From: Ceraceosorus guamensis
Taxonomy: Eukaryota; Basidiomycota; Exobasidiomycetes; Ceraceosorales; Ceraceosoraceae
Direction of reading: 5' to 3'
DNA length: 36,817 bases
NCBI RefSeq assembly: GCF_003144195.1
Contig: NW_020290129.1
Span: 1 to 36,817, forward strand
Positions 16,735 to 27,655 of the stretch are shown in pieces (position 1 is the first letter of the stretch; every line of letters begins with the position of its first letter). Both the position numbers and the translations under genes were made by a program. The notes under the pieces were generated by a model. That model did not search any database. It worked only from the letters and a program-made list of their open reading frames with translations, and had not been told where the DNA came from.

Positions 16735-18831
16735 TCAATCAGAGCTGACAGCGGCAGCTTCCTGTTCATGAGCAAAGCCGCCAGCCGTGCCGAGCTTCTC
16801 CTTGGCAGCCTCGATGAGCTCCTTGCTAGCGTCTTGGAAAGCTCTGCAAATCTCTTCCGGCAGTCTGTTCTTTCTGAGTTCGGGCGCATCGTCGCAGCTG
16901 ACAGCCAAGCTGAAATCGTCGGCATAGGAAATCATGCCGCACGACAAGCTGCTCTTTCCCGGACTCGAAGGCGGCAGGACGTGATAAGAAAAGGCCTTGT
17001 GTTGGCCGAACTCGACGGGTTTGGGAGGTCCAGGTACGTTGGTAGCGACGTGGTACTCTCTATAAGTCCTCTCGAACGCCCATCCCAGACCAAAGTAGTT
17101 TGGAAGGTAGAAGATGCGATGCTTGGAAGCTGTGCCGAAGGAGGAAAACCAAATGCGAGGCCACCAGCTTCGCTTGATCCTGTTCATCTCTCGGTGGACT
17201 TGTTGAAGCTGCGCGTCGAACGACTTGTCCTTTGGATCGTAAAAGGCGAACCATGCCACTGCGCCAGTGGTGAAATTGTTGAGCGACCAATTGCCTTGCG
17301 GTCTCACAGAGATGGGAATGAATACTGCTGTGCGTTTGTCCTTCACTGGCTTTGGCTCTGTACGATCAGCCGCCAGTCTCAGAGCGCGGGACAAGATGCC
17401 GCAAGCCACGTCGTTGAGGCTGAGGTTTACTTTATCGTTCGAAAAAGCCTTTCGAATCAATTTGATGTCCGACATGGCAATGCCGTCCGAGTGGTAGTAC
17501 AGGCGGTTGGGTGCACGGTTACCAGGTCCTGCAGCATTTGCAGGCTTCCCATACTCAAAGACTTTTCTGGAGCGCATCCACAGACCACGAGCAGTGTGGA
17601 AGCCATGCTTTGTTGTGCCCCAAATCGAAGGCTTGATGTTTCGCTGACCCGGCTTCTTGACCTTGCCGCTGCCAGTCTTTCGGTCAAAGTACGCTTGAAC
17701 CTCGGACACTGGCTTGTCCATCTGCATCGCACCGAGTGCAGAGTGGTAGGACATGATCATGCCTTGACCGTCCGAGAAGCAGTGGTGCACCTTGACGATC
17801 AGGGCAGATTTTGCCCCTTCCGAAGTTTCGATACCTCGCACAACTAGAGCATGCCAAACAGGTTTTGCAAAGTCGAAATGCTGGCCAAGGAACTTGCCCG
17901 CCTGATCGAAAAGCGCCTTCTCGTCCTTCGCGCCGCCAGGCAACGAGTCGAGAAAGGTGATGTTATCGCGCGTCTCAAAGTGGTCATCGTACACCCATCT
18001 GGCAGGTCTGAACAGACCGCCCGCCTTGATGCCGCCGCTGACGTGCGATCTTCTGCCCTTCTTCTCCTGTTCTGTCGGCGTCTTTCTCGCTACCGTTTCG
18101 CCGCGCTTCTCGGCTTTTCTGCGCGCTCGCTCATCAGAGCTTGCTTTCCAGGGACTCAGTTCGATGCGGTACCTGTACTTGGGATAGCTATCCGCCAGCT
18201 TTTCAAAGAATTGGAAAACCGTCTCGTCGTCGATGACCGTCTTGAAGAGGTACATGGAGTAGCAAGCGGTCGAGTATCCGTCATTCTCCATCAGCAAAGC
18301 AAGATTGTCGATGCCCGTGAATGGAATGACCCTGCCGCGAGGGTCGAGCGGATGGGAGGAAGTTTGGCGATCCTTTTCACTGCTGGATGTGACCGCAGCT
18401 GCGCCTGCACCAGCGAGTGCACCAGCGCCCACTGCAGCACCTGCTGCAGTCTTTTCTGGGTCATTCTCCGCAGACTTAGGTGCATCCGTAGCATTCTCTG
18501 CAACAGTCTTTTCATCGCTGGTCTTTGCCTGTGGTGGAGGAGGTCTCTGCTCGGCCGGTTCGCTCTCTCTCGGCTTTTCCTGGACAGATGGCTGCTCCAC
18601 TTTCTGCTCGACGGGCTTAGAGACTCTCCGAGAAATCCTGGCGCTTGACGGCGCCTCTGCGGCTTTCTGCGATTGAGAGGCAGATCGAGAATGAGACTTG
18701 GAGCCAGCGCGAGAGTGGGCGGGAGAAGAGGTGGGACTGGATGCTGTGGATGATCTAGCTGCCATCTGCGCTCTGATCCTAGCTCCCTGCTCAGCGGCCG
18801 TGCCTCTACCATGCGTGGGCGACGAAGACAT
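16735..18831 (-). CDS. WS/DGAT-type O-acyltransferase
   Basis: A single exon encodes 698 aa. The catalytic HHxxxDG motif of the wax ester synthase/diacylglycerol acyltransferase family is present as HHCFSDG at residues 349-355. It is followed by the family's C-terminal features, including LNDVACGILSRALR, VFIPISVRP and the NVPGPP block. Such enzymes move acyl groups from acyl-CoA to alcohols or diacylglycerol, making wax esters or triacylglycerol. Residues 1 to about 160 are Ser/Ala/Pro/Glu-rich and probably disordered, with a short Ala/Gly hydrophobic patch near 129-147. A Lys/Arg-rich insertion lies near 230-262. ATG 18831 is the first ATG of the frame and needs no intron. Substrate preference cannot be read from sequence. 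A large open frame on the opposite strand is a shadow of this gene. Confidence 0.88.
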   Translation of the reverse strand: MSSSPTHGRGTAAEQGARIRAQMAARSSTASSPTSSPAHSRAGSKSHSRSASQSQKAAEAPSSARISRRVSKPVEQKVEQPSVQEKPRESEPAEQRPPPPQAKTSDEKTVAENATDAPKSAENDPEKTAAGAAVGAGALAGAGAAAVTSSSEKDRQTSSHPLDPRGRVIPFTGIDNLALLMENDGYSTACYSMYLFKTVIDDETVFQFFEKLADSYPKYRYRIELSPWKASSDERARRKAEKRGETVARKTPTEQEKKGRRSHVSGGIKAGGLFRPARWVYDDHFETRDNITFLDSLPGGAKDEKALFDQAGKFLGQHFDFAKPVWHALVVRGIETSEGAKSALIVKVHHCFSDGQGMIMSYHSALGAMQMDKPVSEVQAYFDRKTGSGKVKKPGQRNIKPSIWGTTKHGFHTARGLWMRSRKVFEYGKPANAAGPGNRAPNRLYYHSDGIAMSDIKLIRKAFSNDKVNLSLNDVACGILSRALRLAADRTEPKPVKDKRTAVFIPISVRPQGNWSLNNFTTGAVAWFAFYDPKDKSFDAQLQQVHREMNRIKRSWWPRIWFSSFGTASKHRIFYLPNYFGLGWAFERTYREYHVATNVPGPPKPVEFGQHKAFSYHVLPPSSPGKSSLSCGMISYADDFSLAVSCDDAPELRKNRLPEEICRAFQDASKELIEAAKEKLGTAGGFAHEQEAAAVSSD

Positions 18832-26479: not shown

Positions 26480-27481
26480 TTTTCTTCCGCACTGCGTCCG
26501 ACCTCGATGGCGAGTCCCCCCTCCGCTTCAAAGGAGATGCGGACCGTTTGTTTCTTTTTGCAGATCTGTACCTCCCCACGTCTGTCTGTCGTCCGCTTTT
26601 CCGTCCCACGTGAGGCCGCGCAACTCTCTCGAGAGGTCGAGGTGTCTCTCCACGCTCTTGGCAAGTTGACCTGAAATGGATGCTCAAAATGACCAGTCAA
26701 GGTAGTCTGGGGCGCAAGTGGAGGGCAAGAAAGCGCAGATCATCGGCGCACACCGTCAGAGTGCGAGTCTGCGAGCGGCAGAGTTAGGTTTGTGAGATGG
26801 TGAGGGTGCGGAAGCATTGCGGATCGCCTGACGCAGCGTTGAATTTGTGATTTGACGATGTGTCATGGTTGTGATTTGTAAGGCATATCAGACATCCACC
26901 AAAGGCCCGCCTAAGCAGCCATCATCAGCAGCAGCAGCAGCAGCAGCATGCAGCAATCAAAAATCAGCAACAGCGTACAGTACATGCAGGCGCGCGGTCA
27001 TTACCTACAGGAATTTAATTGAAGTCAATTTTGATTGTGATGACACGCGCGGGCGCGTCCCACCAAAAACGCGTAATTGTAGGAAAGGCTGTGCTGTGTT
27101 GCTTTACAACCGTCAATCAATCATGGGCCAAACAATTTAAGATGCAAGTAGTGGAGGGACGAGCTAAGAGAATCGCACGCACCTCGCGGCAGGAGGCCGC
27201 GCTCACGCGCTTACCTTGGCACGCGCAAGCGTGCATTCTCATACACTCATGAGCGGCAACATCGATCAATCCAAATGTGAATGAGCGGTAGCTCGCACTC
27301 AAGACTGTCTATTCACATCCTGACTCTTTCTAATGAGCATCAAGTCGTTGATCATATTCAAACAGGCAAGGGCAAATCTCGTCCGAGCTTTCAGAGCCTG
27401 GTGCAGGTCGCTACGCTCCCTGCACAGGACAGTGTGTATGTAAAAGTATTGTATATGATCGTGTAAGAGCAAGAAGCAGAC
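26480..27481. other. Intergenic, SLC25A38-like gene to 5S rRNA
   Basis: About 1 kb without a supportable gene. It should contain the promoter of the carrier gene on its left side. A CAG repeat of about seven units lies near 26926-26947. A TATA-like box precedes the 5S gene. Small open frames near 26465-26700 lie upstream of the carrier ATG on both strands and match nothing I recognise. Confidence 0.5.
27452..27457 (+). promoter_or_regulatory. TATA-like box upstream of 5S rRNA
   Basis: TATATG lies about 25-30 bases before the predicted 5' end of the 5S rRNA. In several fungi, Pol III genes have a TATA element at this distance in addition to internal boxes. This supports the gene being transcribed despite its interrupted internal control region. 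Confidence 0.45.
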
Positions 27482-27648
27482 ATGTACGGCCACACCACAG
27501 GAAAAGTGCCTGGTCCCGTCTGATCCCAGAAGCGGAGACCGGGCGCACTTGTGCGCCTGGCCAGGCCGCAAGCGAAGCGAGCCTAACCCTGTATGGTCTA
27601 GTCAGTATTGCGGTGGGGGACCACGCAAAAATCCTAGATGCCGTAGGT
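27482..27648 (+). rRNA. 5S rRNA gene with 50-nt internal insertion
   Basis: Core sequence and folding identify 5S rRNA, the Pol III-made RNA of the large ribosomal subunit. All five helices can be drawn. Helix I pairs TACGGC (27485-27490) with GCCGTA (27640-27645). Helix II pairs CCACAGG with CCTGTATGG, with a two-base bulge. Helix III pairs GCCTGG with CCAGAAGC, keeping the usual bulged AA. Helix IV pairs TTGCGGTGG with CCACGCAA around a GGGA loop. Helix V pairs TCTAG with CTAGA. Loop C (TCCCGTCTGATCC) and the GGTGGGGGACCACGC block match eukaryotic 5S. The gene spans 167 bases, but 50 of them (27534-27583) are an insertion after helix III; without it the RNA is 117 nt, the normal length. A T8 run follows directly. 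Helix I has one outer G-G mismatch. The ends are accurate to a few bases. Confidence 0.88.
27534..27583 (+). other. 50-nt GC-rich insertion in 5S loop B (intron or expansion)
   Basis: The insertion lies between AAGC (end of helix III) and TAACC (start of loop B 3' strand and helix II) and splits the position of the Pol III internal A box. It is about 74% GC. It can fold on its own into two hairpins. The first has nine pairs, CCGGGCGCA with TGCGCCTGG around CTTG (27539-27560). The second has six pairs with one bulge (27564-27583). The boundary is ambiguous by one base (27533-27582 gives the same joined product). It does not begin GT or end AG, so it is not a standard spliceosomal intron. I saw no clear bulge-helix-bulge motif for the tRNA splicing endonuclease. 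It may be retained in the RNA as an expansion segment. Confidence 0.8.
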
Positions 27649-27655
27649 TTTTTTT
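27648..27655 (+). terminator. Pol III T-run terminator of 5S rRNA
   Basis: Eight consecutive T residues follow the 3' strand of helix I, the standard RNA polymerase III termination signal. The position fits the predicted 3' end and supports transcription from the plus strand. Confidence 0.8.

What the first reader, a model, noticed from the sequence alone, without database searches (positions are those of the whole stretch)
27482..27648. 5S rRNA gene interrupted by a 50-nt structured insertion in loop B
Seen directly: all five 5S helices can be paired, the bulged AA of helix III and the GGGA loop of helix IV are kept, a T8 terminator follows, and a TATA-like box lies at about -30. Yet 50 GC-rich bases sit between AAGC and TAACC. 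Removing them gives 117 nt, the normal eukaryotic size. 5S rRNA is among the most length-constant RNAs known, and insertions or introns in it are very rare. The insertion also splits the internal A box bound by TFIIIA, so transcription may rely on the upstream TATA. It is either an intron of unknown type or a retained expansion segment.
Basis: partly seen in the sequence, partly recalled or inferred. Interest (0 to 1): 0.92.

Follow-up and report, generated by a model that had tools for sequence, protein, structure and literature searches.

The report
5S rRNA gene with hairpin insert
A smut-related fungus carries one 5S ribosomal RNA gene split by a 48-base insert that resembles hairpin sequences found next to its other 5S genes; because most of its 5S genes are intact and this copy has extra damage, it is most likely a decaying copy rather than an intron-bearing gene.

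Summary
In detail: window 27482-27649 (+) is a 5S rRNA gene with a 48-nt GC-rich insert (not 50) at the loop B/helix II boundary. The genome, close to Ceraceosorus bombacis, has at least 11 Rfam 5S hits: nine uninterrupted (119-120 nt), one with a different ~33-nt hairpin insert (contig C6), and this one. The insert does not look like a dispersed element. 41 nt of it match hairpin inserts in 'A-type' 5S units a few hundred bases upstream of the intact genes on C42 and C8. A decayed A-type unit also lies 50 nt upstream of this gene. This copy holds 5 of the 7 private substitutions among nine B-type copies. Two break core pairs, and its predicted 5S fold lies 12.6 kcal/mol above its best alternative, against 0-0.6 for eight intact copies. 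Best reading: a 5S pseudogene that gained its insert by recombination with hairpin-bearing sister units. Intron is not supported. A working expanded 5S is unlikely here but open for C6 and the A-type lineage. No transcript data were available.

The parts
27482..27537 (+). 5S rRNA gene, 5' part (helix I 5' strand to loop B), B-type
   Evidence: Rfam RF00001 match; differs from the eight B-type copies at C3G and A56G
27538..27585 (+). 48-nt insert (equally up to 27541-27588; ACC repeated at the edges)
   Evidence: comparison with eight uninterrupted B-type copies
27542..27557 (+). insert hairpin 1, GGCGCAC/GTGCGCC
   Evidence: 14-mer GCGCACTTGTGCGC occurs 4 times in the genome (reversed control: 1): here, the C42 and C8 A-type units, and C3, where no 5S context was seen
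27564..27583 (+). insert hairpin 2, contains GCAAGCGAAGCGAGC
   Evidence: motif GCRAGCRAAGCRAGC: 22 matches in the genome (reversed control: 2), 13 of them at 5S loci; the other 9 lack the hairpin context
27586..27649 (+). 5S rRNA gene, 3' part (helix II 3' strand, IV, V, helix I 3' strand)
   Evidence: Rfam RF00001 match; private changes G65T, G98A, G100A
27648..27655 (+). T8 run, RNA polymerase III terminator-like
   Evidence: sequence
27452..27456 (+). TATA-like box at about -30
   Evidence: sequence; five of eight B-type copies have TATATATA there, while C41, C42 and C8 have a weaker box too
27354..27431 (+). decayed upstream A-type 5S unit (5' half plus hairpin)
   Evidence: covariance model R1, built from the eight A-type units and not from this one: 22.4 bits, E 1.2e-4 (rough calibration)
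27401..27425 (+). hairpin of that A-type relic, GTGCAGG...CCTGCAC; its loop fits the motif on the minus strand
   Evidence: minus-strand match 27459-27395 of the same model, 23.3 bits, with most of the head unmatched

Best explanation
This is a decaying (pseudogene) member of a dispersed 5S rRNA gene family. At 7 of the 9 uninterrupted genes the locus is tandem: an upstream A-type 5S unit that carries a stable hairpin in loop B and has lost its 3' half, then an intact 5S gene. The insert here most likely came from such a hairpin array by recombination or gene conversion between 5S loci, which share long stretches of sequence. It splits the internal control region (A box, recalled position), and the copy has gathered substitutions at otherwise fixed positions. 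Shown: the insert, its kinship to 5S-locus hairpins, the intact sister copies, the extra substitutions. Inferred: the recombination route, loss of function, and no role in the ribosome.
For: 9 of 11 Rfam hits are uninterrupted, 83.4-88.5 bits, against 43.4 here and 50.8 for C6. Of 11 loci compared, the insert aligns best to the C42 and C8 A-type inserts (score 50, 41 nt; best of 2000 shuffles 31 and 28), then to a stretch upstream of C96 (32; 28); C41, C6 and C19 share only an 18-19-nt hairpin core (26-28), and C14, C27, C30, C32 and the window's own upstream region give no clear match. Apart from the C3 14-mer, no copy of the hairpin array was found away from 5S loci. This gene holds 5 of 7 private substitutions among nine B-type copies (binomial P 0.0003), two of which break helix I and helix II pairs; G100A hits the loop E GAA (motif recalled). 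Canonical fold minus best fold: 0-0.6 kcal/mol in eight intact copies, 6.3 in this copy emptied, 12.6 with the insert; 79 of 200 shuffled inserts do as badly or worse, so the insert is not tuned to the 5S fold. Four-gamete conflicts between head and hairpin columns of the A-type units, 28 of 64 against 13 of 120 within the head, suggest exchange around the hairpin.
Against: A TATA-like box, a T8 run and exact gene ends are kept. Helix III is perfect, and only five substitutions have built up, so decay is recent or partial. One of them (G98A) turns a U-G into a U-A pair. The insert placed in the C42 gene costs only 3.2 kcal/mol (though the mean probability of canonical pairs falls from 0.59 to 0.39), so it need not destroy a 5S by itself. 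The downstream TCGAA element missing here is also missing at the intact C96 copy. No expression data.
Confidence: 0.72

Rival explanations
1. The gene makes a minor, working expanded 5S rRNA of 168 nt, the insert forming an extra branch at the helix II/loop B side, as in some bacteria and archaea.
For: TATA-like box, terminator and helix III intact. Insert hairpins can form beside the enforced 5S fold. Expanded and normal 5S genes coexist in some bacteria (PMC7812874, abstract, Results and passages read).
Against: Core pairs lost, excess private substitutions, fold gap 12.6 kcal/mol and no better than shuffled inserts; nine uninterrupted copies are available.
Confidence: 0.13
2. The insert is an intron removed from the transcript by an unknown or tRNA-type splicing activity.
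For: Exact 48-nt insert; the emptied gene is a normal 120-nt 5S.
Against: No GT-AG placement, no Rfam intron match over the gathering score; similar hairpins lie at slightly different positions in A-type units; most copies lack it.
Confidence: 0.04
3. The insert is a small mobile element (hairpin or palindromic element, or a 5S-derived SINE) that jumped into the gene.
For: Double-hairpin, GC-rich, a 3-nt repeat at the edges.
Against: A mobile family should be dispersed; apart from short motif matches this one was found only at 5S loci (the DNA search skips very common words).
Confidence: 0.08
4. Assembly or cloning artefact.
For: Draft assembly of 199 contigs in which two rRNA end markers are not found; no reads available.
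Against: A 63-base query over the insert finds only itself and its best relatives differ at several positions, so it is not a misjoined copy of another held stretch.
Confidence: 0.03

Closest known systems
5S rRNA pseudogenes under birth-and-death evolution in filamentous fungi (Rooney and Ward 2005, not read; as cited in passages of PMC5555474)
   Same: Multigene 5S family in which damaged copies coexist with intact ones; broken secondary structure and substitution patterns mark pseudogenes.
   Different: Here the damage is a structured insert shared in kind with hairpins at sister 5S loci, in a relative of the smuts (a basidiomycete).
Expanded 5S rRNAs and insert-bearing 5S pseudogenes of bacteria and archaea (PMC7812874; Halococcus morrhuae, PMC7530397, abstract)
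   Different: Those are prokaryotic; several are the only 5S type of the cell, and the core fold is predicted (in Halococcus seen) to stay undisturbed. This copy has a damaged core and intact sisters.
Aspergillus nidulans 5S pseudogenes made of a 5' half joined to another conserved sequence (Borsuk and colleagues; recalled, not read)
   Same: A 5S 5' half followed by a non-5S block that is itself conserved among copies, like the A-type units here.
   Different: The block here is a hairpin in loop B, the units are tandem with intact genes, and one (C6) keeps a 3' half.

Membership tests
Fungal 5S rRNA pseudogene | Intact functional-type copies exist elsewhere in the genome | tested here: met
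   9 of 11 Rfam hits uninterrupted (47 of 1093 candidates scored, so a lower bound)
Fungal 5S rRNA pseudogene | Secondary structure destabilised | tested here: met
   predicted fold gap 12.6 kcal/mol against 0-0.6 in eight copies; two core pairs lost
Fungal 5S rRNA pseudogene | Excess substitutions at conserved positions | tested here: met
   5 of 7 private substitutions, all at positions fixed in the other eight B copies
Fungal 5S rRNA pseudogene | No functional transcript | not testable with these tools
   no RNA data held
Expanded 5S rRNA (PMC7812874 type) | 5S gene with a self-pairing insert of 13-109 nt | tested here: met
   48 nt, two predicted hairpins
Expanded 5S rRNA (PMC7812874 type) | Conserved 5S core left undisturbed | tested here: not met
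   pairs 3-117 and 15-65 lost; canonical fold 12.6 kcal/mol above the best fold
Expanded 5S rRNA (PMC7812874 type) | Expression context like that of functional copies | tested here: inconclusive
   TATA-like box and T8 kept; downstream TCGAA absent, as also at the intact C96
Intron (group I, group II, spliceosomal) | Family covariance match or GT-AG ends | tested here: not met
   only RF00001 passes its gathering score in the window; none of the four insert placements starts GT and ends AG
Intron (tRNA-type, bulge-helix-bulge) | Bulge-helix-bulge at the junctions, spliced RNA | not tested
   no transcript data
Mobile hairpin element or 5S-derived SINE | Dispersed copies outside 5S loci | tested here: not met
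   (only short motif matches elsewhere)

The most novel reading that the evidence does not exclude
Ceraceosorus has, or recently had, a working lineage of eukaryotic 5S rRNA with an expansion hairpin in loop B. All eight A-type units found carry the hairpin (its stem is partly broken in C8) and a TATATATA box. Helix III differs among them by three compensatory pairs, and C6 keeps a whole 153-nt gene with TATA, T8 and a 3' half identical to that of C42. The window's copy would be a B-type gene that acquired a similar segment. It would be the first expanded 5S rRNA described in a eukaryotic ribosome, as far as the listings of the paper searches made here show.
Probability: 0.15. Interest if true: 0.75.

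Novelty: new variant of a known kind. Interest (0 to 1): 0.36.

Why it matters
If it is a pseudogene, it shows in a smut relative the route proposed for bacteria: insert-bearing 5S remnants pass their inserts to full 5S genes by recombination. If any insert-bearing copy (C6 above all) is transcribed and built into ribosomes, the view that eukaryotic 5S rRNA does not expand would need revising, and the case could be tested with ordinary small-RNA sequencing.

Tried and rejected
Mobile element: rejected, because apart from short motif matches the hairpin sequences were found only at 5S loci. Long-term selection on an expanded A-type 5S, argued from compensatory changes in helix III among hairpin-bearing units: not accepted as proof, because head and hairpin columns conflict strongly in the four-gamete test (28 of 64), so heads may have been swapped onto the same hairpin. 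Lack of T4 runs between A and B units as a sign of co-transcription: uninformative, since 6 of 7 loci had none (C41 has one) but shuffles have almost none either. Missing downstream TCGAA as proof of death: rejected, because the intact C96 lacks it too. Target-site duplication: only a 3-nt ACC repeat, not informative. The three-sequence alignment had one row in the wrong orientation and was dropped. The 11-locus alignment mixed orientations and was not used; only the printed sequences were. An rDNA-linked 5S could not be checked: LSU- and SSU-end markers have no match in the held assembly. The first protein search gave no name that helped to place the organism.

Full report
What is there. The window is contig C134 of a 23.8-Mb, 199-contig assembly. 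A neighbouring protein (16735-18831, minus) is 98% identical over its whole length to CBOM_01403 of Ceraceosorus bombacis, with Exobasidium, Meira, Tilletia and Ustilago relatives at about 45-58%, so the genome is probably that species or a close sister. Rfam's only match over its gathering score in the window is 5S rRNA at 27482-27649 + (43.4 bits). The T8 run, the GGGA loop, the bulged AA and a TATA-like box at about -30 are present.

The insert. The genome has 11 Rfam 5S hits (47 of 1093 first-look candidates were scored, so a lower bound). Eight are near-identical 120-nt genes (C41, C42, C14, C8, C96, C19, C27, C30; 'B-type'), one is a diverged 119-nt copy (C32), one is 153 nt (C6) and one is this gene. 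Against the B-type copies the insert is 48 nt and the emptied gene is exactly 120 nt. ACC occurs at both edges, so the insert can be placed at 27538-27585 up to 27541-27588. It lies at the loop B/helix II 3'-strand boundary, within the region recalled as the 5S A box.

Where it comes from. Seven of the nine uninterrupted genes (not C96, not C32) have a second, A-type 5S unit upstream: a TATATATA box, a 5S 5' half, then a hairpin of the form GTGCRGC-GA-GC-RAA-GC-GA-GCYGCAC, without a 3' half of normal form. With C6, which has a 3' half and is a full-length gene, eight such units were found. In C42 and C8 the hairpin region is longer and contains GGCGCACTTGTGCGCCCGGCCAGCAGCGAGCAAAGCAAGC. Of 11 loci compared with the insert, C42 and C8 align over 41 nt (score 50 each; best of 2000 shuffles 31 and 28). 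A stretch upstream of C96 scores 32 (28). C41 (28; 1 of 2000 shuffles as high), C6 (28; 0) and C19 (26; 1) share only an 18-19-nt hairpin core. C14, C27, C30, C32 and the window's own upstream region give no clear match. The 14-mer GCGCACTTGTGCGC occurs four times in the genome (reversed control 1): three at 5S loci and one at C3, where no 5S context was seen. GCRAGCRAAGCRAGC occurs 22 times (reversed control 2), 13 of them at 5S loci; the other nine lack the hairpin context. A 311-base query covering the C42 array found only C42, C8, C41 and C6 (the search skips very common words). So this looks like sequence of the 5S loci, not a dispersed mobile element.

The window's own upstream unit. A covariance model built from the eight A-type units, without this locus, finds an A-type relic at 27354-27431 + (22.4 bits, E 1.2e-4, rough calibration), 50 nt upstream of the gene. 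C14, C19, C27 and C30 have a like layout. The minus strand scores about the same there (23.3 bits), chiefly on the hairpin, whose loop fits the motif on that strand: the loop seems inverted.

Is the gene alive? Among the nine B-type genes (this one emptied) there are 7 private substitutions and this copy holds 5 (positions 3, 56, 65, 98, 100; binomial P 0.0003 if each copy were equally likely to hold one). All five lie at positions fixed in the other eight. C3G and G65T break helix I and helix II pairs. G100A changes the GAA of loop E (motif recalled). G98A makes U-G into U-A and is harmless. The enforced 5S fold lies 0-0.6 kcal/mol above the best fold in the eight intact copies, 6.3 above in this copy emptied, and 12.6 above with the insert for three of its four placements (22.5 for the fourth). 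The insert set in the C42 gene gives 3.2. Of 200 shuffled inserts in this gene's flanks, 79 do as badly as the real one or worse. So the insert is tolerable in principle, is not tuned to the 5S fold, and sits in a gene whose core is decaying. Single-sequence energies are weak evidence: the mean probability of canonical pairs is 0.59-0.66 in the three intact copies examined (C42, C8, C30), 0.39 in C42 with the insert, 0.41 in this copy emptied and 0.32 in this copy as it is.

Exchange among loci. In the eight A-type units, informative columns of the head (1-54) and of the hairpin (57-86; column 55 left out) conflict in 28 of 64 pairs, against 13 of 120 within the head (12 of the 13 involve column 54) and 0 of 6 within the hairpin; the pairs are not independent. 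C14 has the C41-type head on the C30-type hairpin. In C6 the A-type head and hairpin meet a 3' half that matches C42 at 100% over 62 bases. Recombination or gene conversion around loop B is the simplest account and would also bring the insert into this gene (inference).

Helix III. Across A, B and C32 types and this gene (11 distinct rows), helix III has a covariation score of 0.639 (shuffles 0.236 +/- 0.046, 0 of 500 as high) and 18 cells changed on both sides (shuffles 6.1); the number of pairs with a double change, 4, is not above shuffles (194 of 500 as high). Within the A-type units three of its pairs and one pair of the insert hairpin change on both sides (again not above shuffles as a count, 126 of 500; cells and score are, 0 of 500). 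The 5S types thus probably diverged under RNA selection, but because heads and hairpins recombine this does not show that the hairpin-bearing form itself was functional. Whether helix II of C6 can form was not tested with a structure-aware alignment; its single-sequence best fold does not show it.

Literature. PMC7812874 (abstract, Results and passages read; [quoted passage not shown] It also notes that most of 1474 oversized 5S entries in Rfam were eukaryotic and calls them mostly 5S tandems; it did not examine them further in what I read. PMC7530397 (abstract read) shows such an insert in an archaeal ribosome without disruption of the canonical 5S. PMC5555474 (passages read) cites Rooney and Ward 2005 for birth-and-death evolution of fungal 5S genes with 18-83% pseudogenes. 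No eukaryotic expanded 5S or 5S intron was apparent from titles and abstract openings in the listings (20 of 159 papers; 20 of 24; 8 of 8; 10 of 416; 5 of 5); most subscription papers are not held.

Verdict. A real and unusual structure, best read as a 5S pseudogene with a recombination-derived insert (0.72). The strongest open point is whether C6 or any A-type unit yields an expanded 5S RNA.

Noticed in passing
L009:2475-2627 (contig C6), minus strand: A full-length 153-nt 5S gene of A-type with a loop-B hairpin insert, TATATATA box, T8 and a 3' half identical to that of C42: a better candidate for a working expanded 5S than the window's copy.
   Followed up: partly
downstream of 5S units in L001-L004, L006-L009 and L023: TCGAA within 80 nt after the 5S gene at 9 of 12 5S units (background 52 of 460 window stretches; binomial P 5e-7, units not independent), resembling a B box (GGTTCGANNCC, recalled) as downstream of yeast U6 (recalled); absent at C134, C96 and C32.
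   Followed up: partly
L023 (contig C2:258070-258131, minus): A 5S unit with TATA box, T-run and downstream TCGAA but with its 5' half missing.
   Followed up: no
L008 (contig C30 5S), gene position 77: A private A78T change creates an internal TTTT, a possible premature Pol III stop in an otherwise intact 5S gene.
   Followed up: no
G000:C30:128951-128969 (+), L057: A 19-nt exact piece of the A-type 5S (E 0.165) on the opposite strand, just downstream of the C30 5S gene.
   Followed up: no
L010 (contig C32:184777-184895): A diverged 119-nt 5S with its own helix III pairs, no clear TATA box and no A-type unit seen upstream.
   Followed up: no
window 27401-27425: Hairpin of the A-type relic with its loop apparently in inverted orientation, as a template switch between the arms could produce.
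   Followed up: partly
whole assembly G000: Two near-universal rRNA end markers (LSU start, exact; SSU end with one mismatch allowed) have no match, so the rDNA array seems absent from the assembly.
   Followed up: partly
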